Under the pieces are notes generated by a model that had not been told where the DNA came from, ran no database searches, and worked only from the letters and a program-made list of their open reading frames with translations. The translations under genes and the position numbers were made by a program. DNA of 54,205 nucleotides from an uncultured Mycobacteriaceae bacterium (GTDB lineage Bacteria; Actinomycetota; Actinomycetes; Mycobacteriales; Mycobacteriaceae), in NCBI GenBank assembly GCA_902826815.1, contig CADEGF010000050.1, positions 1 to 54,205 on the forward strand. Reading direction: 5' to 3'. Below, in pieces: positions 1,904 through 17,586 of the stretch. The stretch's first letter is position 1; each line of letters opens with the position of its first letter.

Positions 1904-4702
1904 GTGATGGCTGACGGATCCGACATCTCGCTGGCGCCGATCGGCTCTGTGCGCCGCACCAAGGTCGGACACGAAGCCACCGAGCCGATGCGTGAGGACA
2001 TCCGGCTGCTCGGCACCATCCTCGGCGACACCGTGCGGGACCAGAACGGGGACGAGGTCTTCGACCTCGTCGAGCGGGCCCGCGTCGAGTCGTTCCGGGT
2101 CCGGCGGTCTGAGATCGACCGCGCGGAGCTCGCAGGCATGTTCGACGGCATCGACGTGCACCACGCCATCCCCGTCATCCGCGCCTTCACCCACTTCGCA
2201 TTGCTCGCCAACGTCGCCGAGGACATCCACCGTGAGCGACGTCGCGCCATCCACGTGATGGCGGGCGAGCCACCGCAGGACAGCAGCCTGGCGGCGACGT
2301 ACCTGAGGCTCGACTCGGCCGACCTCGATTCTGCAACCGTGTCCGAAACGTTGACCGGTGCGCTGGTGTCCCCGGTGATCACCGCGCATCCCACCGAGAC
2401 CCGGCGCCGCACCGTGTTCGACACCCAGCACCGCATCACGGAGTTGATGCGTCTGCGGCTGCATGCACACACCCATACCGCGGACGGCCGCGACATCGAA
2501 ACCGAACTACGGCGCAATATCCTGACGCTGTGGCAGACCGCGTTGATCCGGTTGTCCCGGTTGAAGATTCAGGACGAGATCGAAACAGGCCTTCGCTACT
2601 ATCCGGCGGCGTTTCTCGAGGTCATTCCCAAGGTCAACGCAGAGGTTCGAGCTGCGCTGCAAGCTCGTTGGCCGGATGCCGCCCTGCTCGAGAACCCGAT
2701 CCTGCGGCCAGGGTCATGGATCGGCGGAGACCGTGACGGCAACCCCAACGTCACCGCCGACGTCGTCCGGCTGGCCACCTCAGGTGCCGCCTACACCGCG
2801 GTCGCCCACTACTTCACCGAGATCACCGCGCTGGAGGAGGAGTTGTCGATGTCGGCGCGGCTCGTCACCGTCAGCGACGATTTGGTGACACTGGCCGACG
2901 CCTGCGACGAACCCGCCCGCGCCGATGAGCCGTACCGTCGCGCGCTGCGGGTCATTCACGCCCGCTTGACCGCGACCGCCCAGCAGATCCTCGATCATCA
3001 ACCGGAACACGAGCTGGACCTCGGCCTCGACCGTTACGACACACCCGCAGAGCTTCTGGCCGATCTCGACGTCGTCGACGGTTCGCTGCGTGGCAACGGC
3101 AGTGCCGTGCTCGCCGACGACCGGTTGGCGCGGCTACGGGAAGCGTTACGCACCTTCGGCTTTCACCTCTCCGGATTGGATATGCGGCAGAACTCCGATG
3201 TGCACGAGGAGGTCGTCGCGGAGCTGTTGGCGTGGGCGGGCGTACATACCGACTATCGGTCGCTGCCCGAGCCTGACCGCATCGAGCTGCTGGTCGCCGA
3301 GCTGGGCACGAGGCGCCCGCTGACCGGCGATGGCGCTGAACTGTCCGAGCTCGCGCGCAAGGAACTCGACATCTGCGCTGCCGCCGCGCGCGCCGTCTCG
3401 GTGTTCGGCCCGTCGGCAGTGCCGAACTACGTCATCTCGATGTGTCAGTCGGTGTCGGACATGCTCGAGGCAGCGGTGCTGCTGAAGGAAGCGGGCCTGC
3501 TCGACGCATCGGCACCCGACGCGTACAGCCCGGTCGGCATCGTGCCGCTGTTCGAGACGATCGACGATCTGCAGCGCGGGTCGTCGATTCTCGAAGCGGT
3601 GCTTGAGCTTCCGCTGTACCGGTCACTGGTGGCTTCGCGCGGCGACAGTCAGGAGGTGATGCTCGGCTACTCCGACTCCAACAAGGACGGCGGCTATTTG
3701 GCCGCCAACTGGGCGCTCTACCGTGCCGAGTTGGATCTGGTGGAGTCGGCAGGCAAGACGGGAATCCGGTTGCGGCTCTTCCACGGTCGCGGCGGCACCG
3801 TCGGCCGCGGAGGTGGCCCCAGCTACGAGGCCATCCTGGCGCAGCCGCCAGGCGCGGTGACGGGCTCGCTGCGGATCACCGAGCAGGGTGAGGTCATCGC
3901 TGCCAAGTACGCCGAGCCGCGGACCGCCCATCGCAACCTGGAGACATTGCTCGCGGCGACACTCGAGGCGTCGTTGCTCGACGTCGAAGGCCTCGGGGAT
4001 GAGGCGGGCCCCGCCTACGAGGTACTCGACGATCTGGCTGCCCGCGCGCACCGCGCCTACGCCGAATTGGTCCATGAAACGCCCGGTTTCGTCGACTACT
4101 TCAAGGCGTCAACGCCGGTCGGTGAAATCGGCGCACTGAACATCGGCAGCAGGCCGACCTCGCGCAAGCCGACGACGTCGATCTCCGACCTGCGCGCGAT
4201 CCCGTGGGTGCTGGCTTGGAGTCAGTCTCGTGTCATGCTGCCCGGCTGGTATGGCACCGGTGCGGCGTTCGAGGAATGGATGGCAGAGGGCGACGGTCGG
4301 CTTGAGGTGCTGCGGGAGCTGTACCGGCGGTGGCCGTTCTTCCGCACGGTGCTGTCGAATATGGCTCAGGTGCTTGCGAAGTCGGATCTCGGCCTCGCGG
4401 CCCGTTACGCGGAGTTGGTCGATGACGAGGCGTTGCGGAAGCGCGTATTCGACAAGATCGTCACCGAACACGAACGCACCATCCGAATGCACCGGCTGAT
4501 CACCGGACACGACGACCTGCTCGCGGACAATCCCGCGCTTGCCCGCTCGGTGTTCAACCGGTTCCCGTACCTGGAGCCGCTGAACCACCTGCAGGTCGAG
4601 CTGTTGCGGCGCTACCGCTCCGGGGACGACGACGAACTCGTGCAGCGCGGCATTCTGTTGACCATGAGCGGACTCGCCACCGCGCTCAGGAACAGCGGCT
4701 AG
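1904..4702 (+). CDS. ppc: Phosphoenolpyruvate carboxylase
   Basis: This enzyme carboxylates phosphoenolpyruvate with bicarbonate to oxaloacetate, refilling the TCA cycle. The product of 932 residues is full length. It has both active-site signatures: [11 protein letters not shown] with the catalytic histidine at about residue 162, and the central [10 protein letters not shown] followed by [14 protein letters not shown]. The C-terminal [15 protein letters not shown] segment is also conserved. Translation can begin at GTG 1904 or the adjacent ATG 1907. M. tuberculosis lacks ppc, while several environmental mycobacteria and M. leprae carry it, so the gene says something about lineage. Confidence 0.97.
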
Positions 4703-4726
4703 CGCGTCGAGACTGCGCTGACGGCA

Positions 4727-5101
4727 CTACAGCCGGGTCGATCGGCGCACCGCGTTGATGGCCCCACGGACCGCGTTCTCGGTGGCGGCGAGGGGCGCCA
4801 TTGCGGCCTCCCCGACGCCGACGATGCGTTCGACGCGATCGACGATGCCCTCGAGGCGGTCGACGACCGCGTTCAGTCGCGGCGCCAGCTCGTTGATCCG
4901 GCTGATCGTGTCGTTGAAGCGCTCCAAGGTGGTGTCGAGGTTGCCCGTCGAGTTGTTGAGATCCTCGAGTGTCTCAGCCAGCCCGGCCAGGACGGCGTCG
5001 ACCTGATCGACCGTGACGTCGGCATTCAGTGCCGCCTGCGCGAGTTTCTGGATACGCTCCCGGCCGGTACGGGCACCGGACCTGCCGCCCTTGTCCACCA
5101 T
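4727..5101 (-). CDS. Small coiled-coil protein, function unknown
   Basis: From MVDKGGRS the protein has about 124 residues and no cysteine. Most of it (about residues 20-105) is a heptad-like helix with words such as LNNSTGNLDTTLERFNDTIS, consistent with a long coiled coil. I do not recognise a functional family. The open frame extends to 5170; an ATG at 5110 is another possible start, and neither has a good ribosome site. It converges on ppc with only 24 bp between them. Confidence 0.65.
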   Translation of the reverse strand: MVDKGGRSGARTGRERIQKLAQAALNADVTVDQVDAVLAGLAETLEDLNNSTGNLDTTLERFNDTISRINELAPRLNAVVDRLEGIVDRVERIVGVGEAAMAPLAATENAVRGAINAVRRSTRL

Positions 5102-5283
5102 GACGGTCATTTGAACATATTGAACGGAACCGCCGTGGTCGACTGGGCGTCTGACCTGCATGCAGCGCAAATTGTGTGCAAGCCGTCCGCGGTTGGCCGA
5201 CGAGTGTGACGCCGAAGGCAGGCGCAGCGACTACACCGCCGGATTCGCCGACGGCGAGTCCGACCGGGCCGATGCCAGCCTTG

Positions 5284-6468
5284 CTAGTGACGGAAGGACA
5301 GCAGGTTCTCGAGGCCGCGCTTATTGGTCTCGTTGGCGATGACGAGCCGCTGGATTTCGGAGGTGCCTTCCCAGATCCGGTCGACCCGCAGTTCCCGCCA
5401 CAGTCGCTCGACCGGATAGTCCCGAATGTAACCGCGGCCGCCGAAGATCTGAACGGCCCGATCCACCACGCGGTTGGATGCCTCCGATGCCGCCAGCTTC
5501 ACGGTTGCAGCCTTGGCGTGCAACGTCTTTCGCTGGTCGGCATCCTGCGGGTCGGCCTGGTCGAACTCCCAGGCCACCTGGTGGGTGAAGGCGCGGTTGG
5601 TGGTGATGTCGACGACGGAGTCCGCGATCATGCCCTGAATCAGTTGGCGGTTGATCAGGGGCTCGCCGCCCTGCACCCGCTCGCGCGCCCAGTCGACGGC
5701 CAGCGTCAGGGCCCGTTCAGCGGCACCGATGGTCCTGGCGCCGATCATCAGCCGCTCCTCGGTGAACCAGTCGCGGGTCAGGTCCAGCCCGCCGCCGATG
5801 CCGCCGAGCACGGCCTCGGCGCCAACCCGCACATCGGTGAATGTGAACTCGGGGTGCTCGTAGACGAAGGTGTGGGTGTAGCGGGGAACGTTGGTGATCT
5901 TCACCCCGGGGGTGTCGACGTCGACGAGGAACATCGTCGGAGCGTGCTCCGGTTCGACGTTCGCCAGCACGATGAGGAAGTCCGCGACGTCGCCGACCGT
6001 GACGAACCATTTCTCGCCGTTGATGACGTAGCCGCCGTCGCCGTCCGGTGTCGCGGTCGTCGTGGCCGCCGAGAAATCCGATCCGGCAGCGGCTTCCGAG
6101 ATCGCAACCGCATCGCGGCGGTCGCCCCGTGCACCGGGGACCAGGTAGCGCTCACGCTGCTCGGGGGTGGCGTGAGCGAGCGGGTTGGCCGGCCGCCAGA
6201 CACAGTCCCACAACGCATTGGTCAGCTTGCCCAGTTCGTCCTGGACAACCACCTGCTCGAGGATGCTCAGGCCCGCACCGCCGAACTCCGTCGGGGTGTT
6301 GATCGCCTGCAGTCCGGAGTCGAGAACCGCGGCCTTGATGGACGCGTGCGCCTGCGCCGACAGGCCGTTGTTCCGCTCGCACTCGTCTTCGAACGGGATG
6401 ATCTTCTCGGTAAGGGTGCGAGCCCGGGTCTTGAGTTCGAGCAGGCGTGGTGAGTATGCGAATTCCAT
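5284..6468 (-). CDS. Acyl-CoA dehydrogenase (first of a pair)
   Basis: This is an FAD flavoenzyme that introduces a 2,3 double bond into an acyl-CoA. The 394-residue protein shows the all-helical N-domain with PTEFGGAGLS, the flavin/substrate segment GYVINGEKWFVTVGDV, and the C-domain with VQIFGGRGYIRDYPVE. The likely catalytic base is Glu367 in IWEGTSEIQR. It is followed on the same strand by the coiled-coil gene, 182 bp away, and preceded by a paralogue of identical length. It is the last gene of the minus-strand catabolic operon. The acyl substrate cannot be told from the sequence. Confidence 0.93.
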   Translation of the reverse strand: MEFAYSPRLLELKTRARTLTEKIIPFEDECERNNGLSAQAHASIKAAVLDSGLQAINTPTEFGGAGLSILEQVVVQDELGKLTNALWDCVWRPANPLAHATPEQRERYLVPGARGDRRDAVAISEAAAGSDFSAATTTATPDGDGGYVINGEKWFVTVGDVADFLIVLANVEPEHAPTMFLVDVDTPGVKITNVPRYTHTFVYEHPEFTFTDVRVGAEAVLGGIGGGLDLTRDWFTEERLMIGARTIGAAERALTLAVDWARERVQGGEPLINRQLIQGMIADSVVDITTNRAFTHQVAWEFDQADPQDADQRKTLHAKAATVKLAASEASNRVVDRAVQIFGGRGYIRDYPVERLWRELRVDRIWEGTSEIQRLVIANETNKRGLENLLSFRH

Positions 6469-6506
6469 GGTGAAACAGGTCCTTTCAGATGCATAGGTTG
6501 ACGTCG

Positions 6507-7691
6507 TTATCGAGTTGTGGCGCAGCCGATCGGCAGATCGAGGAACGTGGTGCCGCGCTTGATCAGTTCGTTGGCGACGATGACGCGCTGGATCTCCGAT
6601 GTGCCTTCCCAGATGCGGTCGACGCGCACCTCGCGGTACATCCGCTCGATGGGGTAGGAGCGGTCATATCCTCTGCCGCCGAAGATCTGCAGGCAGCGAT
6701 CGACGACCCGCCCAGCGGCCTCGCTTGCGGACAGCTTGGCGATGGATGCCTTGGCGTGCAACGTCTTCCGGTCGACGCCGTTGTCGGCCTCCCAAGCGAC
6801 CTGGTGGGTGTAGGCGCGGTTCACGGCGATGTCGACGGCAGAGTCCGCCAGCATCGACTGGATCATCTGGAAGTCGCTGATCGGCTGGCCGAACTGTTTG
6901 CGCGCAATGGCCCAGTCGCGCGCCAGCTTCAGCGCGCGTTCGGCGACGCCGACGGTGCGTGCGGCGATCATCAGGCGCTCGTCGGTGAACCAGTCCTTGG
7001 TGAGTTCGAAGCCCTGGCCGACCTCACCGAGGACCGAGTCCGTCGGTACGAACACGTTCTCGAAGACGAACTCGGGATGGCCGTTGACAGCGGAGTGCAT
7101 GAAGTGCGGTGTGCGGGTGAGCTTTACCCCTGGTGTGTCCTTCTCGACGAAGAACAGCGTGGATGCGTCGTCCGGCAGGACATTCGCCTGCACCAGCAGG
7201 AAGTCGGCCACGTCACCGCAGGTGACGAACCACTTCTCGCCGTTGAGTAGCCAGCCGCCGTCGACCGGAGTCGCGGTCGTGGCGATCGCGCCCGCATCGG
7301 AACCCGAATCCGGTTCGGTCGTCGCGAACGCGTCGAATCGCTCGCCGCGCAGGATCGGCAACAGGTAGCGCTCTCGCTGCTCTTCTGATGCCAACGCCAA
7401 CACATTCGACGGCCGCCACGGGATGTCCCACAGGCAGTTCGTCACCTTGCCGAATTCCTCCTCGACGATGACCTGCTCGAGAAGGGTCAGGCCTGCGCCG
7501 CCCCATTCCTTCGGCATGTTGATCCCGTATACGCCCGCGTTCATCGCCGCGCGGGTGAGTTTGTCGACGGTCTCCTTGGGCAGCGGGCCGCCTGCCTCCT
7601 CGGCCTCGTTCTCGTAACCCATCAACAGCTCGGCGTACGCGGCAGCGCGCGCCTTCAGCTCCTGCTGTGCGGCGGTGTATGCGAAGTCCAT
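6507..7691 (-). CDS. Acyl-CoA dehydrogenase (second of a pair)
   Basis: Paralogue of the downstream dehydrogenase and also 394 residues. It carries MPKEWGGAGLT, NGEKWFVTCGDVADF, LQIFGGRGYDRSYPIE and the catalytic-base motif IWEGTSEIQR (Glu362). The start at MDFAYTAAQ is set by a clear AGGAG ribosome site; the frame is open further upstream but that part lies inside the next gene and looks like shadow coding. Mycobacteria often build alpha2beta2 acyl-CoA dehydrogenases from adjacent genes, but here both copies keep the catalytic glutamate, so two separate enzymes are equally possible. Confidence 0.93.
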   Translation of the reverse strand: MDFAYTAAQQELKARAAAYAELLMGYENEAEEAGGPLPKETVDKLTRAAMNAGVYGINMPKEWGGAGLTLLEQVIVEEEFGKVTNCLWDIPWRPSNVLALASEEQRERYLLPILRGERFDAFATTEPDSGSDAGAIATTATPVDGGWLLNGEKWFVTCGDVADFLLVQANVLPDDASTLFFVEKDTPGVKLTRTPHFMHSAVNGHPEFVFENVFVPTDSVLGEVGQGFELTKDWFTDERLMIAARTVGVAERALKLARDWAIARKQFGQPISDFQMIQSMLADSAVDIAVNRAYTHQVAWEADNGVDRKTLHAKASIAKLSASEAAGRVVDRCLQIFGGRGYDRSYPIERMYREVRVDRIWEGTSEIQRVIVANELIKRGTTFLDLPIGCATTR

Positions 7692-7701
7692 CTGTTTTCT
7701 C

Positions 7702-9753
7702 CTACTGGTCGGTGACGATTCGGGCGTCAAGGGCGGTTGCCCCGGACGGGGTGACGAGCAGCGGGTTGATCTCCAGTTCGGCGATCTCCGGATGAGCCGC
7801 GGCATACTCGCTGAGACGCGCGACAGCCCGCGCGGCCGCCGCGATGTCCACCGCAGGCCTGCCGCGGTGCTCGCGCAGCAGCGCGGCGGTGCGCAGCCGT
7901 TCGAGCATGCGATGGGCGCCCGCCTCGTCGACGGGAGCGAGCGCGATCTGCACATCGCGCAGCACCTCGGTCGCCGTCCCGCCCATGCCGACCAGAACCG
8001 TCGGCCCGAAGCGGGGATCCCAGCGGGCGCCGACGATCAACTCCACGCCACCCTTGACGTCGGCCATTTCCTCGACAGAGAACGACGGCGGATCGAGCCT
8101 GTCGACCAGCCGGGCGTGCGCATCGAGAAGCGACTCGCGCGACGCGAGCCCGACCACGACGCCGCCTGCATCGGACTTGTGCAGCACGCCCAGCGCCTTC
8201 AGGACGAACGGCCCGTTCAGTTCGCCTGCGGCGGAGGCAAGTTCGTCCCGGCTGCACACTTCGCAGGCAGGAACGAAGTCGATCCCCGCAGCGGCGAATG
8301 CGCGGCGCGACGCCGTGTAGTCCGTCGCAGTGACGGGCTGCGCGGGTGCAGGCAGCGGTGGCAGGCCGGCGGGTGCGGCGGGTGCGGTGACCGCGGCCAG
8401 CGCGGTTGCGGCGTCTTCGATCGCCGCGAAGAGCGGAACCCCGCCGTCGCGAAGGATCTGGCACGCGGGTGCGTCAGGGTAGATCGACTGCACCGCAGTC
8501 GGTTTGGTGCAGCCGGCATCCGCCGCGATCTGTTTGGCTGCCGCGCATTCCGAGGGACCCAGACCGGTCAGACCGTCCTCGCCGCTCGAGTAGCCGCCGA
8601 AGTAGCCGGTCATCAGGATCGCGTCGACCTCGTCGCAGTCCTGCAGCACGGCATAGGCGCGCGCATAGCTGTCCGGGTCCATTTCGCCTGCACCGGCGAG
8701 GTCGACAGGGTTGCCCACCTGCGACTGTGACCACAGCGCATCCTTCAGCCGGGACTGTGTCGCCGCGCTGAGTTCGGGAACATCGAGCCCAGCTGCCTCT
8801 GCGACGTCGCAGCCGATCACCCCGTGCCCGCCGCCATCGGTGAGCACCGCAACCCGTCGGCCTCGCGGAACCGCCTGCTGCCGCAGGGCGAGCAGCACAT
8901 CGGCGAGCTCGCGAGGGGTGTGCACGAGGATTGCCCCTGCCAGTTCAGCCGCGGCGGCGATCACAGCCGAGTCACTGGTCAGCGAGCCTGTATGCGATTG
9001 GGCGCCACGTGCAGCCGCGGTGCTCGCGCCCGCGGCCAACACCACGACGGGTGTTCCCGAACACACCGCAGCGGCCGCCGCGTCGACGAATCCGCGGCCG
9101 TCGCGGAAGTCTTCGATGTACACCGCGATCGCCGACGTCGCGGGATCGGCGGTGCACGCGTCAACCAACTCGACGAGGCTGACGTCGGCCTGGTTTCCCA
9201 GCGAGACGAACCTGGAGATGCCGAGTCCGCGCGCGGTGAACAGCCGGTCGAGCTCGATGGCGAGGTTGCCGCTCTGGCTCAGCACGGCGACGCTGCCCGG
9301 CGCGAATTGATTCGACGACAGATACGTCGCGGTGGTGTTGTCCACCAGGCCAAGGCAGTTGGGGCCGACCAGAACCGCGCCCGCATCGCGGACACGGGTG
9401 ATCAACGCCTCCTCGCGGGCCCGTCCCTGCGCACCCGCCTCGCCGAGGCCCGCCGTGATCGCGACAATCGCTCGCGCGCCCCTGGCGAGCGCACCGTCGA
9501 CGGCGTCCTCGAATCCGGCCTCCGGCACCGCGATGACGACGAGGTCAACCGGCCCGTCCAGCTCCTCGACCGCCGCAACGGTCTGATGCCCGAGGATTTG
9601 GCCGCCGCTGCGGTTCACCAGTTGAACGTTGTGCCGGTCGGCGCCGCGAAGCGCCTGCAGCGCAACGGCATTACCCCATTTCGCCGGGTCGGTGCTTGCG
9701 CCGACGACGGCGATCGATGCCGGGTCGAACAGCGCGCTCAGGTCCCTGTTCAC
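7702..9753 (-). CDS. ADP-forming acyl-CoA synthetase (fused alpha-beta)
   Basis: This enzyme family links an acid to CoA with ATP going to ADP and phosphate. The 683-residue protein has, in order, a CoA-binding Rossmann domain (about 1-130, starting LFDPASIAVVGAS), a succinyl-CoA-ligase-like domain (about 140-450) and an ATP-grasp domain (about 470-683). The motif QSHTGSL contains the histidine that is phosphorylated in this family. The GTG start overlaps the ferredoxin stop (GTGA), implying coupling. In context it probably activates an acid made by the neighbouring oxidases for the two acyl-CoA dehydrogenases. Confidence 0.88.
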   Translation of the reverse strand: MNRDLSALFDPASIAVVGASTDPAKWGNAVALQALRGADRHNVQLVNRSGGQILGHQTVAAVEELDGPVDLVVIAVPEAGFEDAVDGALARGARAIVAITAGLGEAGAQGRAREEALITRVRDAGAVLVGPNCLGLVDNTTATYLSSNQFAPGSVAVLSQSGNLAIELDRLFTARGLGISRFVSLGNQADVSLVELVDACTADPATSAIAVYIEDFRDGRGFVDAAAAAVCSGTPVVVLAAGASTAAARGAQSHTGSLTSDSAVIAAAAELAGAILVHTPRELADVLLALRQQAVPRGRRVAVLTDGGGHGVIGCDVAEAAGLDVPELSAATQSRLKDALWSQSQVGNPVDLAGAGEMDPDSYARAYAVLQDCDEVDAILMTGYFGGYSSGEDGLTGLGPSECAAAKQIAADAGCTKPTAVQSIYPDAPACQILRDGGVPLFAAIEDAATALAAVTAPAAPAGLPPLPAPAQPVTATDYTASRRAFAAAGIDFVPACEVCSRDELASAAGELNGPFVLKALGVLHKSDAGGVVVGLASRESLLDAHARLVDRLDPPSFSVEEMADVKGGVELIVGARWDPRFGPTVLVGMGGTATEVLRDVQIALAPVDEAGAHRMLERLRTAALLREHRGRPAVDIAAAARAVARLSEYAAAHPEIAELEINPLLVTPSGATALDARIVTDQ

Positions 9754-9944
9754 TTGGCCACCTGCAGGGCGCGGGCCGGGCAGGAGCCCACGGCGTCATG
9801 GGCGAGGTTGAGTGCGGACGAGGGGACCGTGCCGTCGCCGATCAGCTCGGCGTAGCCCGAGTCGTCAAGGTCGACGAGGTCCGGTGCGGCCATCTGGCAC
9901 AGGCCGTAACCCTGACAAACATCTGTGTCGAGGATGAGCTTCAT
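9750..9944 (-). CDS. Small single-cluster ferredoxin
   Basis: The 64-residue protein has C10-x5-C16 (CQGYGLC) near the start and a third cysteine at 55 in SCPARAL. This is the actinobacterial 3Fe-4S-type arrangement, where the usual fourth cysteine is missing. Such ferredoxins give electrons to monooxygenases, mostly P450s. Here the only oxygenase nearby is the divergent Rieske protein, so it may be its electron donor (inference). No dedicated ferredoxin reductase is in the island. It overlaps the upstream gene by ATGA and the downstream one by GTGA. Confidence 0.9.
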   Translation of the reverse strand: MKLILDTDVCQGYGLCQMAAPDLVDLDDSGYAELIGDGTVPSSALNLAHDAVGSCPARALQVAK

Positions 9945-10348
9945 GACATCTCCCTTTGGTGTCCATGTGGTTGGTTGTCGATCCGCGACTCGAGCACCGG
10001 GATCGCTTCGGCGAGGCGGCGCCGGCGCTCGGCCGTGCGGTGATAGGCGCTGCCAGGCAGCCCGATCAGCATCCGGTCGTGGTCGAGCACGACCTGCGCG
10101 ATGGCGAGCGCCAGTTCGGCGTCTCCGTCGCGGTTCCCATCGGCCACCTCGAGCGCGAGATCGGCGGCCCGGTCGAGGTAGCGCAGCCAGCGTCGGCCGG
10201 TGCCCCGCAGGACGAGGCGGGTGACGCGATTCTGCTCGTGCGTCACCGTCGACTCCTCCTGCAGGTAGGCCAGCAATTCGGGCAGAGAGCGCTCCGGCTC
10301 GGGGGTTAGGCCCAGCCACGCGGTGGCCGCCCGCGAGTGCCTGTGCAC
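9941..10348 (-). CDS. Unknown protein coupled to ferredoxin
   Basis: From GTG 10348 the product has 135 residues and is charged, mostly helical, without cysteine motifs or membrane segments. That GTG is preferred over the further upstream start because a perfect AGGAGG lies five bases before it. The stop overlaps the ferredoxin start (ATGA), so the two are translated together. I do not recognise the family. It may be an accessory factor for the oxygenase or the ferredoxin. Confidence 0.7.
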   Translation of the reverse strand: MHRHSRAATAWLGLTPEPERSLPELLAYLQEESTVTHEQNRVTRLVLRGTGRRWLRYLDRAADLALEVADGNRDGDAELALAIAQVVLDHDRMLIGLPGSAYHRTAERRRRLAEAIPVLESRIDNQPHGHQREMS

Positions 10349-10440
10349 TAGGTCCTCCTGACCCTTGACATGTGATGCGTAACACTGGCACAGTAACAAA
10401 CTAATCAGTTAGTCAGCTAGTGCCAAATTTGGAGACGCCC
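10349..10440. promoter_or_regulatory. Divergent promoter region with a TetR-type operator candidate
   Basis: This gap separates the two divergent arms of the catabolic island. It contains the inverted repeat ACTAA-TCAG-TTAGT (10400-10413), and the sequence continues as an 8-bp-spaced repetition with TCAG at 10405-10408 and 10413-10416. It is the most likely target of the TetR protein encoded in the operon (inference). The repeat overlaps the GTG at 10420, which supports a later oxygenase start at 10441. Confidence 0.5.
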
Positions 10441-11622
10441 GTGAAGACAGTCGAAAAGACCGTCGAAAACAAGAGGCCGCGCCGTCCGCGCGTGGAACTC
10501 GAACCGCTGGAGCCGGGACTGGACTCGCGGTACTACACCGATCCGCAGGTCGCCGATCTCGAACAGCAAGCCATCTTCGACCGCACCTGGCAGCTCGTCG
10601 GCCACGTCACCGATCTGCCCAACCCGGGCTCGCGCATCGTCGGCTCGATCGGCCGCAAGGAAGTCGTCGTCGTCCGCACCGAGGACGGTGGCATCCGGGC
10701 CCACCTCAACACCTGCAGGCATCGCGGCACCCGGCTGGTTTCCGAACCCGGCGAGGAGAAGGCGCTTCGCTGCCCGTATCACGGCTGGACCTACCACCTC
10801 GACGGCACGCTCGTCGGTGCGCCGGAGAACCGCACCATCCCGTGCCTCGACAAGTCGAAATTGTCGTTGTTCTCCGCGCGGGCCGAGGTGTTCTGCGGGT
10901 TGATCTTCGTCAACCTCGACGGCGCCGCCGAACCGCTTGCGCCACAGCTGGGGGGTGTCCGACCGCTGCTCGAGCGCTATCTCGGTGGCGAGATGGAAGC
11001 GTTCGGCGAGGCCCGCATCCACGTCAACCAGCCCGGCCACACGCAGCTGTCGAACTGGAAGGTCGCGGTCGACAACTACCTGGAGGGCTACCACGTGCCC
11101 GTTGCCCACCCGGGATTGATGCGGCTGCTCGACTACAAGAGGTACTCGGTGGAGACGACCGATGCCTACGTCGTCTACGACGCCCCGTTGCGCGAGAAGG
11201 CATCCGACAACTGGGCCGAGCGGGCCTACCAGCGCTACGTCCGCCCGATGCCCGGCCTGATCGAAGAGGACAGGAGCATCTTCCGCTACATCGCGATCTA
11301 CCCGAACACGGTGATCGACCTGTATCCCGATCATGTGCTGCTGTGGAAGATGAACCCGCGCGGCGTGGACCAGGTCGATGTGCCGGGTACATACCTGCGC
11401 CGAAAGGACTGCGATCTGCGCACCCGCATCGCCCAGAAGCTCAATCTCTACGTCAGCAAGATCACCAACCACGAGGACGAGGATCTGGTCGAGCGTATGC
11501 AGATCGGGTTGGGCAACACCGACTTTCGGCCGGGCCCGCTGTCGTTGCGGGAGAGGGGAGTGGCGTGGTTCGCCTCCCGTATCCGCGCCGACCTGGGTGA
11601 CCTGTCGGAGCTCGACCAATGA
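10441..11622 (+). CDS. Rieske non-heme iron oxygenase, alpha subunit type
   Basis: The protein of about 393 residues has an N-terminal Rieske domain with Cys92-x-His94-x16-Cys111-x2-His114 (NTCRHRGT and CPYHGW). The catalytic domain has the mononuclear iron motif DNYLEGYHVPVAH, with His218 and His223 as ligands. Where ring-hydroxylating dioxygenases have a bridging aspartate, this protein has Glu215. A glutamate there is known in carnitine monooxygenase CntA and similar quaternary-amine enzymes, so an N-alkyl or quaternary amine substrate is plausible. The start at GTG 10441 has a GGAG site six bases upstream. Its stop overlaps the regulator's start. Confidence 0.88.
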   Translation: MKTVEKTVENKRPRRPRVELEPLEPGLDSRYYTDPQVADLEQQAIFDRTWQLVGHVTDLPNPGSRIVGSIGRKEVVVVRTEDGGIRAHLNTCRHRGTRLVSEPGEEKALRCPYHGWTYHLDGTLVGAPENRTIPCLDKSKLSLFSARAEVFCGLIFVNLDGAAEPLAPQLGGVRPLLERYLGGEMEAFGEARIHVNQPGHTQLSNWKVAVDNYLEGYHVPVAHPGLMRLLDYKRYSVETTDAYVVYDAPLREKASDNWAERAYQRYVRPMPGLIEEDRSIFRYIAIYPNTVIDLYPDHVLLWKMNPRGVDQVDVPGTYLRRKDCDLRTRIAQKLNLYVSKITNHEDEDLVERMQIGLGNTDFRPGPLSLRERGVAWFASRIRADLGDLSELDQ

Positions 11623-12263
11623 TGGCGACCGAGTCTCGGCGCACGCGCGCCGAGATCGCCGCGGTAACCAGGGAGGCGATCCTCAACGCCGCGTGCGAGA
11701 TCATCGGCGAGGAGGGCTTCGAGAAGATCCGGATGCGGATGGTGGCGGAGCGGGCAGGCGTCTCCACGGCGGCTCTGCACTACCACTTCGACAACCGCGA
11801 AAAGCTCTTCGCCGAGGCGCTGCGCTTCTCGTTCGAGCACACCGGCCGCGACGTCTACCAGACTCCGTCCGAAACCGATACCGCGACAAAGCGGTTGGCA
11901 CGCATCATCACCGCTTCGCTTCCGACCACCGAGAGCCTGCGTCGCGAGTGGGCGATGTACCAGGAGCTGTGGTGCCGCGCGAACCGCGAGTCCGAAGCCC
12001 GCTCGGTGGCCATCGAGCTTCACCGGGCGCAGCAGGGCTGGATCGAGGAGACGCTGGCTGACGGCATCGCATCGGGGGAGTTCGCCAAGTGCGACACCGT
12101 GGCCCTGGCAGGCCTGATCAGCTCGCTGTGCGACGGACTCGGCGTGCAGCTGATGTTCGGAAACCCGTCCCTGTCCGTCGATTCCGCGCGTTCGACCATC
12201 TGGACGCAGGCAGCAGCAGTACTCGGCATCGCCGATGAATTCCCCAAGGAGAACCGCCCGTGA
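11619..12263 (+). CDS. TetR-family regulator
   Basis: The 214-residue protein starts with a TetR helix-turn-helix (about residues 15-62: REAILNAACEIIGEEGF, then VAERAGVSTAALHYHFDNRE). The rest is a helical ligand-binding domain resembling the BetI group. Four-base overlaps (ATGA upstream, GTGA downstream) place it inside the oxygenase-transporter operon. It probably represses the divergent promoter in response to the imported amine or a metabolite; this is inferred from position. Confidence 0.92.
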   Translation: MMATESRRTRAEIAAVTREAILNAACEIIGEEGFEKIRMRMVAERAGVSTAALHYHFDNREKLFAEALRFSFEHTGRDVYQTPSETDTATKRLARIITASLPTTESLRREWAMYQELWCRANRESEARSVAIELHRAQQGWIEETLADGIASGEFAKCDTVALAGLISSLCDGLGVQLMFGNPSLSVDSARSTIWTQAAAVLGIADEFPKENRP

Positions 12264-13390
12264 GAATGGTGGCAACCCCCGACTTCAGCCGAAGGCGGTT
12301 CCTGTTCGGCGCCGCCGCAACCGCGGCAGTGCTTGCCGCGCCCGGCTGTGCCTACATGTCGCCGAAGCCGAACCCGGCGGCGACCAAGCCAGTCGAGCCC
12401 AAGATCGACGGCGACCTCGTGTACTTCAACTGGGCGGACTACGTCGACCCGACGGTGTTCGAGGGATTCCAGCAGGAGTATGGCGTCAAGGTCATCCAGT
12501 CGAACTTCGACTCGATGGAGAGCATGGCCGCCAAGCTCTCCGCGGGAAACCGATACGACATCATCTTCCCCTCCGCGCAGTGGGTGCAGAAGCTGGTGGC
12601 CGCCAATCAGCTACGGGCCATCGACCCGTCGACGCTGAAGAATGCGCCGCTGATCTTCGACCACTATCCGTACTTCGCCAACCCCTGGTACGACGAGCAC
12701 TCGGCGCACTCCATCCCATTCTCGATGTACAAGACCGGGATCGCCTGGCGCAAGGACAAGCTTGGCCAGAACCTATCCGGAAGCTGGTCGGACCTGTGGA
12801 ACGAGGAGTCGAAGGGACGCACCTTCGTCCTCGACGACCGCGACGAGGTGCTCGGCATGCTCGCGCTGCTTCAGGGCTATGAACTGAACACCGCCGCCAC
12901 CGATGAACTCAACGGGATCATCGACAAGTTCCGCACATTGCGGCCGTACCTGCGCGGGCTGTCCAGCGACGACTACAACAACCTTCTGGCAGGCGACGCC
13001 TGGATACATCAGATGTGGAGCGGCGACATGGCCGCGCTGCTGTCGCAGGCACCCGACGCGTCGATCTACGGGTTCGAGGCGTCTAAGGAGGGCACGCCGG
13101 TCAACTCCGACACCTACGCGATCCCCGTCAACGCGGAACATCCTGGCACCGCACTGCTTTTCATCGACTACATGCTGCGGCCGGAGAATGTCGAGAAGAA
13201 CATCAACTACATCGGCTATCCGATGCCGGTGCACGGCACAGAGGACGTCTATCAGGAGATCATCGCCGACTATCCGGCGTGCACCGTCACCGTCGGCGAC
13301 CTGTCGCGCGACCTCTATTTCACCAACGACAGTGTGGCCAAGACCCAGACCCGCGACGCCGCCTATACGGAAATGAAGGTGGGCGTATGA
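12260..13390 (+). CDS. PotD-like polyamine-type substrate-binding protein, Tat-exported
   Basis: This is the extracellular solute-binding part of the importer encoded by the next three genes. The N-terminus has a twin-arginine signal (SRRRFLFGAAATAAVLAAPGC). Cys30 may be lipidated, although the lipobox is not canonical. The mature part has family-1/PotD-like words: VYFNWADYVDPTVFEGFQ near the start, and YAIPVNAEHPGTALLFIDY later. Translation starts at the GTG overlapping the regulator stop, or at an ATG two codons later. Polyamines, betaines and related amines are the usual ligands of this group. Confidence 0.92.
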   Translation: MRMVATPDFSRRRFLFGAAATAAVLAAPGCAYMSPKPNPAATKPVEPKIDGDLVYFNWADYVDPTVFEGFQQEYGVKVIQSNFDSMESMAAKLSAGNRYDIIFPSAQWVQKLVAANQLRAIDPSTLKNAPLIFDHYPYFANPWYDEHSAHSIPFSMYKTGIAWRKDKLGQNLSGSWSDLWNEESKGRTFVLDDRDEVLGMLALLQGYELNTAATDELNGIIDKFRTLRPYLRGLSSDDYNNLLAGDAWIHQMWSGDMAALLSQAPDASIYGFEASKEGTPVNSDTYAIPVNAEHPGTALLFIDYMLRPENVEKNINYIGYPMPVHGTEDVYQEIIADYPACTVTVGDLSRDLYFTNDSVAKTQTRDAAYTEMKVGV

Positions 13391-14304
13391 CCTCGACACT
13401 TGACCGGACGCTCGAGCGGCCCGACGCGCCGCCGGAGGCGTTACCGGAGCGGCGCCCAAGCCGTCAGCGGCTGTGGACCGCGATGTTGGTGCCCGGCACC
13501 GTGTGGATGTCGGTGTTCTTCGTCTCCGCACTGCTGCTGCTGGTCGCGCTGACCTTCGGAACCACTGATGCGCTTGGCAATCCGCGATTCGGCAGCACGC
13601 TGGACAACATCATCGGAATCTTCAACCCGACGTATCTGAGGGTGATCGTCCGCAGCCTGGCGTACGCGGTCGTCGCGTCCGCGATCTGCCTGCTGATCTC
13701 CTACCCGGTGGCATACGCCATCGCGCGACACGGCGGGCGCTACAAGAACGCTCTCGTCGCGCTGCTCGTGGTGCCGTTCTTCGCGAACTATCTGGTACGG
13801 ATGTACGGGTGGCAGACACTGCTGTCGGATGAGAGCGCCGTGATGACGTGGCTGCGCGGCATCGGCGTGCCCGCCAGCTTCCACGTACTCGACACCTCGG
13901 GCGCGGTGATCGGTGGACTGGTCTACGGCTACGTCGTGTTCATGATCCTGCCGCTTTATGCGTCCCTCGAGCGGATGGACGGCTCGCTGATCGAGGCGGG
14001 CCGCGACCTGTACGGCACGTCGCTTCGCACCTTCTTCGCGGTGACGGTGCCCGCGTCGAAGTCCGGTGCCTATGCCGGCCTCGCGCTGGTGTTCCTGCCC
14101 GCGATGGGCGATTTCATCAGTGCGCAGTTGCTCGGCGGCCCGGACAACCTGATGATCGGCAACCTCATCCAGGACAAGTTCTTCGCAGGCCAGAACTGGC
14201 CGTTGGGTGCCGCGCTGACGATGGCGCTGATGGTGCTGCTGCTGATCTGCATGTTCGCCTACCTGCGCCAGACGGCGCGGGATACCGAGGAGGCCAACCG
14301 ATGA
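13387..14304 (+). CDS. ABC importer permease, PotB type
   Basis: A 305-residue inner-membrane protein with about six transmembrane segments. Its cytoplasmic coupling loop is LIEAGRDLYGTSLRTFFAVTVP, the EAA-like motif that docks on the ATPase. The start at MTSTLDRT overlaps the stop of the binding-protein gene (ATGA). It pairs with the next gene as the two halves of the channel. Confidence 0.93.
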   Translation: MTSTLDRTLERPDAPPEALPERRPSRQRLWTAMLVPGTVWMSVFFVSALLLLVALTFGTTDALGNPRFGSTLDNIIGIFNPTYLRVIVRSLAYAVVASAICLLISYPVAYAIARHGGRYKNALVALLVVPFFANYLVRMYGWQTLLSDESAVMTWLRGIGVPASFHVLDTSGAVIGGLVYGYVVFMILPLYASLERMDGSLIEAGRDLYGTSLRTFFAVTVPASKSGAYAGLALVFLPAMGDFISAQLLGGPDNLMIGNLIQDKFFAGQNWPLGAALTMALMVLLLICMFAYLRQTARDTEEANR

Positions 14305-15128
14305 AGGGCTCGGGAATGAATCGCAAGCCGCGGTTCGCCATCGCTGTCACGGTGGTGTTCTTCGTCCTGCTTTATCTGCCGATCGCCGCGGTGGTGCTGT
14401 TCTCGTTCAACAACAAGAAGTCGCTCACCGTCTTCGAGGGTTGGTCGCTGCGCTGGTATGAGGCCTTCCTCAATGACGCGGAGCTGACCAAATCGCTGCA
14501 GACCAGCCTGCAGGTCGCCGCGGTCGCGATGGTCGGCTCCATCATCATCGGCGCACTGCTGGCGTTCGGTCTGGTGCGGGCGCGCTCGCGTCTCGGTCGT
14601 GCCGCCAACATCATCATGTTGATCCCGCTGATCACACCGGAGATCGTCACAGGCGTCGCATCGCTGATGTTGTTCAAAGGCATTGGCCTGCAGCCGTCGC
14701 TGACCACCCTGGTGATCGCCCAGACGACATTCTCCATCTCGTATGTCACGGTGATCCTGCGCGCGCGGGTGGCCGAACTCAACCCGGAGGTCGAGCAGGC
14801 GGCGATGGACCTGGGAGCGAGCCGAATCCAGGCACTGCGCCTCGTGACGCTGCCCGCGATGACGCCCGCGATCCTGTCTGCGGCGATCCTGATCTTCACG
14901 ATCGTCTTCGACGACTTCGTGCTCGCGTTCTTCACCAGCGGTGTGGATCCCCAGCCGCTGTCGGTGCGCATCTACTCGGCGATCCGCTTCGGTATCCAGC
15001 CCTCTATCAACGCCGTCGGCACCCTGATGCTGGTCGGTTCCCTGTTACTGATCGCCATCGCCCTACTCGTCCCGCGCCTCTTCGGCAGGCGCGGCGCCGG
15101 ACTCGACATCTTCGGAGGAACAACCTAA
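14301..15128 (+). CDS. ABC importer permease, PotC type
   Basis: A 275-residue permease with about six membrane helices. It has the PotC-like hydrophobic N-terminus FFVLLYLPIAAVVLFSFNN and the coupling loop EQAAMDLGASRIQALRLVTLP. The ATG overlaps the preceding stop (ATGA). A second ATG five codons later is also possible. Together with PotB it forms the transmembrane channel. Confidence 0.93.
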   Translation: MKGSGMNRKPRFAIAVTVVFFVLLYLPIAAVVLFSFNNKKSLTVFEGWSLRWYEAFLNDAELTKSLQTSLQVAAVAMVGSIIIGALLAFGLVRARSRLGRAANIIMLIPLITPEIVTGVASLMLFKGIGLQPSLTTLVIAQTTFSISYVTVILRARVAELNPEVEQAAMDLGASRIQALRLVTLPAMTPAILSAAILIFTIVFDDFVLAFFTSGVDPQPLSVRIYSAIRFGIQPSINAVGTLMLVGSLLLIAIALLVPRLFGRRGAGLDIFGGTT

Positions 15129-16256
15129 ATGTCCACAACCACTTCAACTCTGAGCCCGATCGAAACCATCGACGGGTCCGTTGCGACCACGCCGTGTGCG
15201 GTGTCATTGCGGAATGTCGCCAAGTCGTACGGCGACAGCGTGGTGGTGCGCGACCTCAACCTCGATATCGCAGCCGGCGAATTCTTCTCGCTGCTCGGGC
15301 CGTCGGGATGCGGGAAGACCACAACGCTGCGGATGATCGGCGGCTTCGTCGATCCCACGTACGGCGTGGTGGCACTGCACGGCAATGACGTCACCGACTT
15401 GCCGCCGAACCGTCGCGACGTGAACACGGTGTTCCAGAGCTATGCGCTCTTCGATCACCTGTCCATCTGGGAGAACGTGGCATTCGGCCTGCGTCGCCGC
15501 CGGGTGGCCAAGGCCGAGATGAAGCAGCGCGTCGGCGAGATGCTCGAGCTGGTGCAGCTCACCGGCCGCGACAAGGACAAGCCGACTGCCTTGTCGGGCG
15601 GTCAGCGTCAGCGCGTCGCGCTGGCCCGTGCACTCGTCAACCGCCCCTCGGTGCTGCTGCTCGATGAGCCGCTGGCCGCACTGGACCTCAAACTGCGCAA
15701 GGCGATGCAGGTGGAGTTCAAGCGTATTCAGCGGGAGGTCGGCATCACGTTCGTGTTCGTCACGCATGATCAGGAAGAAGCGCTGACGATGTCCGATCGG
15801 ATCGCCGTGATGAGTGGCGGCAAGGTGCACCAGTGCGGGACACCTGAGGACATCTACGAGCATCCGACCACCCGCTGCGTCGCGGATTTCATCGGCACCG
15901 CCAACCTGATGACGGGAACGTATGCGGGCGCCGGGATCACCCTTTCCGGCGGTGTCGAACTGCCGACCGGAGCGCTTGACGGTTGCGCCGTCGGCGATGA
16001 GGTGTCGGTCGCCGTGCGTCCGGAGAAGGTGTGGCTTTCAGACCTCACTGAAGACATGGTGCAGACCGACGGCATCCTCAAGGCCACCGTCTACAGCGGA
16101 GCGACCACGACGTACATGTTCGAGATCGCACCCGGCGTCGAGATCTCGGTGCTCGAGCAGAACCTGCACCGCGCGCGCACCGAGGAGCGCTGGGTCGACG
16201 GGGAGCGGGTCCGCCTCGGCTGGCACGCCGAACACAGCCTCGCCCCGCTGGTCTGA
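15129..16256 (+). CDS. ABC importer ATPase, PotA type
   Basis: The 375-residue ATPase drives the importer. It has Walker A at residues 57-64 (GPSGCGKT), the signature [15 protein letters not shown], Walker B VLLLDEP, and a C-terminal TOBE domain (about 290-370). The TOBE domain marks spermidine/putrescine, iron and sugar importers. The ATG follows the PotC stop without a gap. The set PotD-B-C-A is complete. Confidence 0.95.
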
Positions 16257-16272
16257 AATAGGAGTCATCACA

Positions 16273-17586
16273 GTGTCTTACGACGTCGTAGTACTCGGCG
16301 CAGGCCTGGCCGGCCTGTCCGCCGCCAGGGATCTCGTGCGGGGTGGCGCGGATGTCCTCGTCCTTGAAGCCCGCAGCCGGGTCGGCGGTCGCGTCGAGCA
16401 GGCCACGCTCGACGACGGCCGCATCGTCCAGCTCGGCGGCGAGGTCGTCGGCAATGGGCATACCGCCTATCAGCAGTTGGTCGCCGAACTCGGCCTGACG
16501 CTCATCCCGAGCTACGTCGCCGAACCAGGCGAGCTGACATACGTTCTGCACGAGGACCTGCACGTCGGCGACGACCCGTCCTGGTTCTCCGACGAGGATC
16601 ACCGGAGCATGAGGCACGTCGAGCGTGAGTTCGCCGCGCTCGCGGCGACCGTCGACGCCGACGATCCGTGGTCGCATCCGAACGCGGTCGCGCTGGACGC
16701 CATGCCGATGATGGGCTGGCTGGGCAGCATCGGCGCGACGCCGAACGTGCGTCGTGCTCTGGAGGCGGGTCAGCTCGGCCTGAGTTCCGGTTCGTTCGAA
16801 CGTACTTCGCTGCTGGCACAACTGCGCAAGTCCGCGAGCATGCCGAGCAAGGGTCTGTATTCCTATGACGAGTGGGAGAACCTGCGTGTCGCCGAAGGCT
16901 CGGCGACCGTGGCGTTGCGGATGGCCGCCGAACTCGACGGCCGCATCCGGTTGAACTCGCCGGTGCGGGCCGTCAAGGTCGCGCCAGACAGCTCGTCTGT
17001 TCAGCTGACGTCGGGAGAGATCGTGCACGCCGACGTCGTCATCAGCTCGTTGCCCGCCGGGCCGTTCCGAGATATCGCCGTCGAGGGCGTCTCCGATGGA
17101 CGTCTCGAGTCGCTGCATCGTCAACGGCACGCGTTGGCTGCCAAGTTCGTTGCGGCATACAGTCGCCCGTTCTGGCGCGACCGCGGACAGAACGGTCTGA
17201 CCGAATCCGAGGGCATCCTCGGTTCGTCATGGCCACAGAACGAAGGCGTGCTGTCCTGCCTCGTTTCGCCGGAGCGCTACGCCGCCTATCTGTCCGCCTC
17301 GGCGCGGCACCGACGGGAGGAGGCGCTCGCCGAGCTCGCCAGCTGGTTCGGGCCGGAGGCGTCGTCGCCACTGGCGACATTCGAGCGACTGTGGGGAACC
17401 GACCCGTGGACGCAGGGATACGTGACGCAGTGGCGGCCGGGCGATGTTCACCGGGTCGGTCCGTTGCACGGCACGCATGAGCCCCCGTTCTACGTCTGCG
17501 GTTCCGACCAGTGGGTGGCCGGATACATGGAAGGCGCCGTGCGGACCGGTCGTGCCGCCGCGAAGGAGGCGCTGACGCGCGGTTAG
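16273..17586 (+). CDS. FAD-dependent amine oxidase
   Basis: The 437-residue protein belongs to the monoamine/polyamine oxidase family. It has the N-terminal dinucleotide fold [16 protein letters not shown], the second FAD contact [10 protein letters not shown], and the C-terminal FAD motif [18 protein letters not shown]. Such enzymes turn a C-N bond into an imine that hydrolyses to an aldehyde. The GTG start has an AGGAG site 9 bases upstream. It is the last gene of the importer operon, so it probably acts on the imported amine. It converges on pgl, and the stop codons overlap. Confidence 0.9.

What the first reader, a model, noticed from the sequence alone, without database searches (positions are those of the whole stretch)
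5284..17586. A self-contained amine uptake and breakdown island
Twelve genes in two divergent, tightly coupled operons combine a complete PotD/B/C/A importer, a Rieske oxygenase, an FAD amine oxidase, a TetR regulator, a ferredoxin, an ADP-forming acyl-CoA synthetase and two acyl-CoA dehydrogenases. The order suggests import, oxidative C-N cleavage, CoA activation and beta-oxidation of a polyamine, betaine or similar amine. The exact combination is not one I know as a described pathway.
Basis: partly seen in the sequence, partly recalled or inferred. Interest (0 to 1): 0.75.

Follow-up and report, generated by a model that had tools for sequence, protein, structure and literature searches.

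The report
Conserved amine-import-and-oxidation gene cluster
A set of twelve bacterial genes appears to import a charged amine and burn it as fuel with an unusual mix of enzymes; the same set recurs in distantly related actinobacteria, but the molecule it feeds on is still unknown.

Summary
Window 5284-17586 has twelve coupled genes in two divergent operons: two acyl-CoA dehydrogenases, an ADP-forming acyl-CoA synthetase, a ferredoxin and an orphan protein (minus); a Rieske oxygenase, TetR, PotD/B/C/A and a flavin amine oxidase (plus). It is a conserved unit: of 34 other loci holding the Rieske relative, 34 have the oxidase, 33 PotD/B/C and 31 the synthetase and a dehydrogenase; those 3 misses are contig ends. 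A palindrome, ACTAA-N4-TTAGT, lies within 200 bp upstream of the Rieske gene in 23 of 34 and nowhere else in 643 kb. 'Self-contained' fails: relatives add an aldehyde dehydrogenase, a NuoF-like NADH flavoprotein and beta-oxidation genes missing here. The island separates pgl from a small gene that neighbours it in 10 of 12 congener loci. Best model: import of a di- or polyamine-like cation, oxidation to an omega-amino acid, CoA ligation and beta-oxidation, with one Rieske hydroxylation or N-dealkylation. Substrate and Rieske step are unproven. My searches found no published description.

The parts
5284..6468 (-). acyl-CoA dehydrogenase 1 (394 aa), catalytic-Glu motif WEGTSEIQR present
   Evidence: Pfam PF00441/PF02770/PF02771 above cut-off; motif; 58% aa identity to ACAD2
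6507..7691 (-). acyl-CoA dehydrogenase 2 (394 aa), catalytic-Glu motif present
   Evidence: Pfam on the containing ORF; motif; nearest dehydrogenase 74-78% identical in most Streptomyces loci
7702..9753 (-). ADP-forming acyl-CoA synthetase (683 aa)
   Evidence: CoA_binding_2 + Succ_CoA_lig + ATP-grasp_5; nearest solved relatives 3-hydroxypropionate-CoA ligase, 4-hydroxybutyrate-CoA ligase, DMSP lyase; SHTGS motif
9750..9944 (-). small single-cluster ferredoxin, CxxYxxC...CP (64 aa)
   Evidence: Fer4_15 on the containing ORF; no NCBIfam match; motif
9941..10399 (-). orphan protein, 152-aa ORF (true start probably near 10330), helical; the twelfth gene
   Evidence: no Pfam/NCBIfam; homologous ORF in 16 of 19 other loci; 11-sequence alignment with invariant W28LGLTP and W71LRYL; AF2 pLDDT 74.6, six helices, no PDB match at E<=0.001
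10345..10420 (.). conserved divergent promoter block (TTGACA at about 10365)
   Evidence: alignment of 6 mycobacterial sequences, window included
10400..10413 (.). palindrome ACTAATCAGTTAGT, putative operator of the local TetR
   Evidence: one copy in the window, up to 2 mismatches allowed, one exact copy in the 6.87-Mb own genome; ACTAA-N4-TTAGT upstream of the Rieske gene in 23 of 34 loci, none elsewhere in them
10420..11622 (+). Rieske non-haem iron oxygenase alpha subunit (start probably GTG 10441)
   Evidence: PF00355 + PF00848; metal ligands invariant in a 15-sequence alignment; best sequence match in PDB is CntA; AF2 pLDDT 81.1
11619..12263 (+). TetR regulator with BetI-type C-terminal domain
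   Evidence: PF00440 + PF13977 above cut-off
12260..13390 (+). PotD-like solute-binding protein with a twin-arginine, lipobox-like leader
   Evidence: SBP_bac_8; PotD/PotF best in PDB; leader letters (reading of the leader is mine); pocket residues
13387..14304 (+). PotB-like permease
   Evidence: BPD_transp_1; NF007044 PotB best, 208 bits, cut-off 348
14301..15128 (+). PotC-like permease
   Evidence: BPD_transp_1; NF007047 PotC best, 182 bits, cut-off 326
15129..16256 (+). PotA-like ATPase
   Evidence: ABC_tran + TOBE_2; TIGR01187 potA subfamily 358.9 bits, cut-off 355.6
16273..17586 (+). flavin amine oxidase, nearest solved relative putrescine oxidase
   Evidence: PF01593; 2yg6 best, E 2e-51; alignment

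Best explanation
A catabolic island, probably spread laterally, for a di- or polyamine-like cation. Proposed flow: (1) the exported PotD-like lipoprotein binds the cation and PotBCA imports it; (2) the Rieske monooxygenase, with electrons from NADH through a flavoprotein (a NuoF-like protein encoded in the cluster in Streptomyces, Streptacidiphilus and Couchioplanes) and the small ferredoxin, performs one N-dealkylation or hydroxylation; (3) the flavin amine oxidase deaminates to an omega-aminoaldehyde; (4) an aminoaldehyde dehydrogenase (in-cluster in relatives, assumed to come from elsewhere in this genome) makes the omega-amino acid; (5) the ADP-forming synthetase makes the CoA ester; (6) the two acyl-CoA dehydrogenases, then hydratase and 3-hydroxyacyl-CoA dehydrogenase (in-cluster in some relatives, otherwise assumed housekeeping), carry out beta-oxidation. 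A dedicated TetR controls both operons from the palindrome at 10400-10413. Shown by sequence: gene content, coupling, motifs, co-conservation, palindrome, extra genes in relatives. Inferred: substrate class, order of steps, Rieske reaction, electron path, TetR binding, lateral spread.
For: Co-conservation of importer, oxygenase, oxidase, CoA ligase and dehydrogenase in Mycobacterium, Streptomyces, Streptacidiphilus, Couchioplanes and, rearranged, in a Thermoleophilia MAG. Acidic polyamine contacts kept in PotD: in 11 of 11 actinomycete sequences aligned, window included, position 36 is D, 171 is E and 257 is D. PotA passes the polyamine subfamily cut-off. The amine oxidase is nearest to putrescine oxidase. 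An aldehyde dehydrogenase gene follows it in 32 of 34 loci, directly in 31 and about 1.9 kb further in L041; the one Streptomyces copy tested passes NF010000 (622.9, cut-off 615) and is nearest in PDB to gamma-aminobutyraldehyde dehydrogenase. A 3-hydroxybutyryl-CoA dehydrogenase subfamily protein (474 bits, cut-off 319), gene in 23 of 34 loci. NuoF-like gene in 26 of 34 loci; the own genome has a separate NuoF-like/ferredoxin pair overlapping by 4 bp in a region with two P450 genes. Palindrome. Empty site.
Confidence: 0.5

Rival explanations
1. A quaternary-ammonium (betaine) pathway: the imported compound is gamma-butyrobetaine-, carnitine- or choline-like, the Rieske enzyme cleaves C-N or demethylates as CntA or GbcA do, and the oxidase and CoA branch process the remainder.
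For: CntA is the best PDB sequence match (5e-35) and GbcA the best NCBIfam match (140 bits). The CntA residues Y203 and E205 have equivalents (roles, and the claim that an aromatic residue at 203 is restricted to CntA and close relatives, from PMC7948474, passages seen). BetI-type TetR domain. Some proteobacterial loci with 32-37% identical Rieske enzymes hold Pot genes together with BKACE, 4HBT thioesterase or GcvT-like genes, families that I recall from carnitine or methylamine catabolism.
Against: GbcA cut-off is 670, so membership is not met. The Cys pair of CntA and Stc2 is absent: the motif reads NYLEGYHVPVAH in 32 of 34 loci and in the window; PMC10952381 says 'some' group V enzymes have the pair (passages seen). 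The aromatic-x-Glu pattern was not specific in this genome: of 12 Rieske paralogue matches, 9 were taken and 7 could be aligned there; 6 of 7 have an aromatic residue at 203 and 7 of 7 the Glu. A flavin amine oxidase would not be expected to attack a quaternary amine directly (recalled). The importer is Pot-type.
Confidence: 0.2
2. An aryl or otherwise bulky amine (plant or microbial amine, polyamine conjugate or xenobiotic): the Rieske enzyme hydroxylates an aromatic or hydrophobic part, the oxidase and dehydrogenase deaminate the side chain, the CoA branch degrades it.
For: Fold ranking puts aromatic ring oxygenases first. The mycobacterial aldehyde dehydrogenase also scores with phenylacetaldehyde dehydrogenase models (493.6 bits, cut-off 850). 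PotD W255 and Y85 are altered.
Against: No ring-cleavage gene and no Rieske beta subunit among the conserved genes that I annotated. The acid pattern of the polyamine site is kept in PotD. The Streptomyces aldehyde dehydrogenase tested passes the aminobutyraldehyde subfamily model.
Confidence: 0.2
3. Not catabolic: the cluster makes or modifies a metabolite, or detoxifies an amine, and the acyl-CoA enzymes are anabolic.
For: Flavin oxidases and Rieske enzymes also occur in biosynthesis (recalled).
Against: Importer, ADP-forming synthetase, two dehydrogenases with catalytic Glu motifs and, in relatives, 3-hydroxyacyl-CoA dehydrogenase or hydratase genes point to breakdown; no carrier-protein or exporter gene among the conserved genes that I annotated.
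Confidence: 0.1

Closest known systems
PotABCD/PotFGHI polyamine importers
   Same: complete four-part ABC importer; PotA passes TIGR01187; acidic ligand residues of PotD kept
   Different: PotD, PotB, PotC far below equivalog cut-offs; W255 and Y85 of E. coli PotD replaced
Quaternary-ammonium Rieske oxygenases (CntA/YeaW, GbcA, Stc2)
   Same: Rieske alpha protein with no beta subunit gene among the annotated conserved genes; Y203 and bridging E205 equivalents; best PDB sequence hit is CntA
   Different: 26% identity to E. coli YeaW in the alignment; no CxxC next to the iron; ferredoxin and NuoF-like partner genes where CntA uses the reductase CntB (PMC7948474, passages)
Rhodococcus putrescine oxidase with aminobutyraldehyde dehydrogenase
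   Same: oxidase nearest in PDB; aldehyde dehydrogenase next to it in relatives
   Different: the stretch of putrescine oxidase before and at 324 is shortened and changed, position 394 deleted; CoA branch, and no aminotransferase among the annotated conserved genes
Three-component Rieske oxygenase systems
   Same: oxygenase, ferredoxin and an NADH flavoprotein encoded together in 26 of 34 relatives' loci
   Different: flavoprotein is of the NuoF family (Complex1_51K + NADH_4Fe-4S) and the ferredoxin of the CxxYxxC single-cluster kind

Membership tests
Rieske non-haem iron oxygenase | Rieske [2Fe-2S] ligands CxH/CxxH and mononuclear iron His-His | tested here: met
   C99, H101, C118, H121, H225, H230 invariant in 15 sequences
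Group V (quaternary ammonium) Rieske oxygenases | aromatic residue at CntA Y203 and bridging E205 | tested here: inconclusive
   both present, but the pattern also occurs in 6 of 7 alignable Rieske paralogues of the genome
Group V (quaternary ammonium) Rieske oxygenases | Cys pair next to the mononuclear iron (held by some members) | tested here: not met
   Gly and Val in its place; described as present in some members only (PMC10952381, passages)
Group V (quaternary ammonium) Rieske oxygenases | placement in the group V clade of a reference tree | not tested
Glycine betaine monooxygenase GbcA | NCBI equivalog cut-off 670 bits | tested here: not met
   140 bits
Polyamine ABC importer (Pot) | PotA subfamily score | tested here: met
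   TIGR01187 358.9, cut-off 355.6
Polyamine ABC importer (Pot) | PotD equivalog score | tested here: not met
   NF007048 139 bits, cut-off 582
Polyamine ABC importer (Pot) | binding of a polyamine | not testable with these tools
   acid residues at E36/E171/D257 positions kept, which is suggestive only
Putrescine oxidase | diamine-recognition Glu (E324, recalled) | tested here: not met
   the stretch is shortened and changed, with no Glu aligned at 324; the gap placement is uncertain and conserved Glu residues lie two or more positions before it
ADP-forming acyl-CoA synthetase | CoA-binding, succinyl-CoA-ligase-like and ATP-grasp domains with SHTG His | tested here: met
Aminobutyraldehyde dehydrogenase subfamily (gene of relatives only) | NF010000 cut-off 615 | tested here: inconclusive
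   L029 622.9 passes, L026 455 does not; gene absent from the window

The most novel reading that the evidence does not exclude
An undescribed CoA-dependent beta-oxidation pathway for an imported di- or polyamine-type cation, in which the committed oxygenation is done by a Rieske enzyme fed by a new electron chain, NADH to NuoF-like flavoprotein to CxxYxxC single-cluster ferredoxin to Rieske oxygenase, assisted by a new helical protein family (window 9941-10399).
Probability: 0.3. Interest if true: 0.7.

Novelty: new variant of a known kind. Interest (0 to 1): 0.5.

Why it matters
Bacterial polyamine breakdown is usually described as ending by transamination to succinate (recalled). A conserved cluster that couples a Pot importer to a Rieske oxygenase, an amine oxidase and a CoA beta-oxidation branch suggests a different use of cationic amines as fuel. 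In most relatives it also pairs a Rieske gene with a NuoF-type flavoprotein gene, a partnership that search 53 and the passages seen of one review (PMC12445004) did not describe. The cluster recurs in culturable Streptomyces, so substrate and chemistry can be tested directly.

Tried and rejected
Rejected: chance collocation; eleven genes only (the twelfth is a conserved orphan); strict putrescine oxidase identity; GbcA or PotD equivalog membership. Led nowhere: the fold search of the orphan protein gave 336 matches at E<=10 but none at E<=0.001; the fold ranking of the Rieske model did not separate CntA-like from aromatic oxygenases; the class-wide sample shows the cluster is rare (8 of 394 genomes), so co-occurrence statistics beyond synteny were not tried; the GC profile shows no sharp step; the plasmid collection gave no relative at 60% identity or more (949 records matched). 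Hydratase, SDR and 3-hydroxyacyl-CoA dehydrogenase relatives were not sought in the own genome.

Literature: no paper describing the cluster in searches (15 listed; 15; 1; 4); one search held 15 papers, 12 were listed, and the one listed with both 'NuoF' and 'Rieske oxygenase', PMC13274426, uses nuoF to drain NADH and names a Rieske oxygenase only in a reference title (passages); search 76 (7 listed), on CoA beta-oxidation of diamines, held nothing relevant by title and abstract start. Beyond listings I saw passages of PMC10952381, PMC7948474, PMC4096761, PMC12445004 and PMC13274426. The library holds open-licence papers only.

In the layout the oxidase of L025, L026 and L028 is hidden by an overlapping aldehyde dehydrogenase hit; searches show it. 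The PotA hit of L028 is a 39% stray, so L028 (M. triplex) counts as lacking PotDBCA. L037, L134 and L136 are cut by contig ends. Aldehyde dehydrogenase misses: L023 (contig ends near the oxidase) and L042. The palindrome is absent in 11 of 34: L029, L035, L041, L042, L122, L123, L125, L126, L127, L134, L140; the upstream stretches of L029 and L035, printed, show related but different repeats. For the empty site, one search gave 13 same-genus matches besides the own one and 12 became loci; of those, 10 have the small gene within 200 bp of pgl, L147 and L149 do not.
Full report
What is there. The window is one whole contig of a 6.87-Mb genome. It belongs to the genus of M. triplex: same-genus genome G163 has the contig length of the M. 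triplex record (5,893,857). Between ppc and pgl lie twelve genes in two divergent runs. Eleven have clear Pfam families. The twelfth, ORF 9941-10399(-), has none but has homologous ORFs in 16 of 19 other loci; eleven aligned sequences share invariant WLGLTP and WLRYL. Its AlphaFold2 model is helical (pLDDT 74.6) without a solved match at E<=0.001. Six gene pairs overlap by 4 bp.

It is a conserved unit. In samples, a match at E<=1e-60 occurs in 5 of 198 genomes of the window's genus, the own genome included, 8 of 394 of its class and 16 of 199 of the genus around G363, which by shared contig lengths is Streptomyces. In 34 distinct loci other than the window, the oxidase is found in 34, PotD, PotB and PotC in 33 (M. 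triplex lacks them), the synthetase and an acyl-CoA dehydrogenase in 31 (L037, L134 and L136 are cut by contig ends), a TetR in 31, the orphan protein in 31 and the ferredoxin in 30. Order and orientation agree, apart from the TetR gene, which in Streptomyces lies at the far end of the minus operon, and apart from the Thermoleophilia MAG L042, where the genes are rearranged at 27-59% identity. Most of the 34 loci are Streptomyces, so they are not independent.

What relatives add. After the oxidase, 32 of 34 loci have an aldehyde dehydrogenase gene, directly in 31 and about 1.9 kb on in L041. The one tested from Streptomyces (L029) passes the aminobutyraldehyde dehydrogenase subfamily cut-off; the mycobacterial one tested (L026) does not and is nearer to betaine-aldehyde models, which it does not pass either. 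Between ferredoxin and orphan protein, 26 of 34 loci have a NuoF-like gene; the L029 protein has the FMN-binding and 4Fe-4S domains. A 3-hydroxybutyryl-CoA dehydrogenase gene is present in 23 of 34. Four of five mycobacterial loci (L023, L025-L027) and L033 carry an SDR and an enoyl-CoA hydratase. The window copy has none of these. Its genome has 17 aldehyde dehydrogenase matches at E<=1e-80, the best only 46% identical to the mycobacterial cluster enzyme, and one NuoF-like protein 52% identical to the Streptomyces one. That one overlaps its own small ferredoxin gene by 4 bp and lies among P450, acyl-CoA dehydrogenase and thiolase-like genes, so NuoF-like plus small ferredoxin may be a portable electron module for oxygenases (inference).

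Control. The divergent region holds a block more conserved among six mycobacterial sequences than the adjoining gene starts, including the palindrome ACTAATCAGTTAGT at 10400-10413, the only copy in the window and the only exact one in the own genome. The looser form ACTAA-N4-TTAGT occurs in 23 of 34 loci, always within 200 bp upstream of the projected Rieske start and never elsewhere in 643,347 bases. This is good evidence for a dedicated operator; that the local TetR binds it is inferred.

Placement. In 10 of 12 same-genus loci with pgl, the homologue of window ORF 4727-5170 lies within 200 bp of pgl. In the window the island separates these two. In none of the 83 loci L023-L105 did ppc, pgl or opcA of the window give a hit beside the cluster, though contig ends limit some. 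So the cluster sits at different places in different genomes. Lateral spread is the simplest reading; there is no GC step, no mobile-element gene was looked for, and no tree was built.

Chemistry. PotD has D at 36, E at 171 and D at 257 in the 11 actinomycete sequences aligned (L042: A, E, D), D (L042: E) at 168, N (L042: Q) for W255 and Q or K (L042: D) for Y85; E36, E171 and D257 contact the three amines of spermidine in E. coli PotD (PMC4096761, passages). So the ligand is probably a cation with more than one amine, but not spermidine held in the E. coli manner. The oxidase is nearest to putrescine oxidase but differs in the stretch before and at 324. The synthetase is nearest to ligases of short omega-substituted acids. 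These three point to an omega-amino acid that is made and then ligated to CoA. The Rieske enzyme is nearest by sequence to CntA and has equivalents of the Tyr and Glu that matter there, but 6 of 7 alignable Rieske paralogues of the same genome show that pattern too, although PMC7948474 calls the aromatic residue restricted to CntA and close relatives (passages); the Cys pair is absent, and by fold aromatic ring oxygenases rank as high or higher. Its reaction is therefore open; N-dealkylation or hydroxylation next to nitrogen is my best guess.

Distant relatives. Rieske proteins with motifs close to NYLE[SG]YHVP sit near one or more Pot genes in proteobacterial loci. In those whose proteins I scanned (L049, L053, L057) the neighbours include amine-oxidase-like flavoproteins, a class III aminotransferase, GcvT-like, BKACE, thioesterase and aldehyde dehydrogenase families. 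A Rieske-plus-Pot association thus extends beyond actinobacteria, apparently with other downstream routes.

Verdict.

Noticed in passing
window 4727-5170 (-): Short conserved gene without a Pfam match, homologous to a gene within 200 bp of pgl in 10 of 12 same-genus loci.
   Followed up: partly
L168 6762-8347 (own genome C26): NuoF-like flavoprotein and small single-cluster ferredoxin overlapping by 4 bp, followed by a thiolase-like/ChsH2-like protein and near two P450 genes; possible general NADH-ferredoxin module for oxygenases.
   Followed up: partly
L046, L047, L049, L050, L053, L054, L057, L058, L062, L079: Proteobacterial loci with Rieske oxygenases of the NYLE[SG]YHVP kind (NNLENYHVP in L047) near one or more Pot genes; some with BKACE, GcvT-like or aminotransferase genes.
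   Followed up: partly
L027 about 4547-5240 and upstream: In M. montefiorense the first acyl-CoA dehydrogenase gene appears in two pieces; not examined further.
   Followed up: no
L028 / L024: M. triplex keeps the enzymes but lacks PotDBCA in the cluster.
   Followed up: no
L110: One Streptomyces Rieske relative is reported with one TGA inside the match; only described.
   Followed up: no
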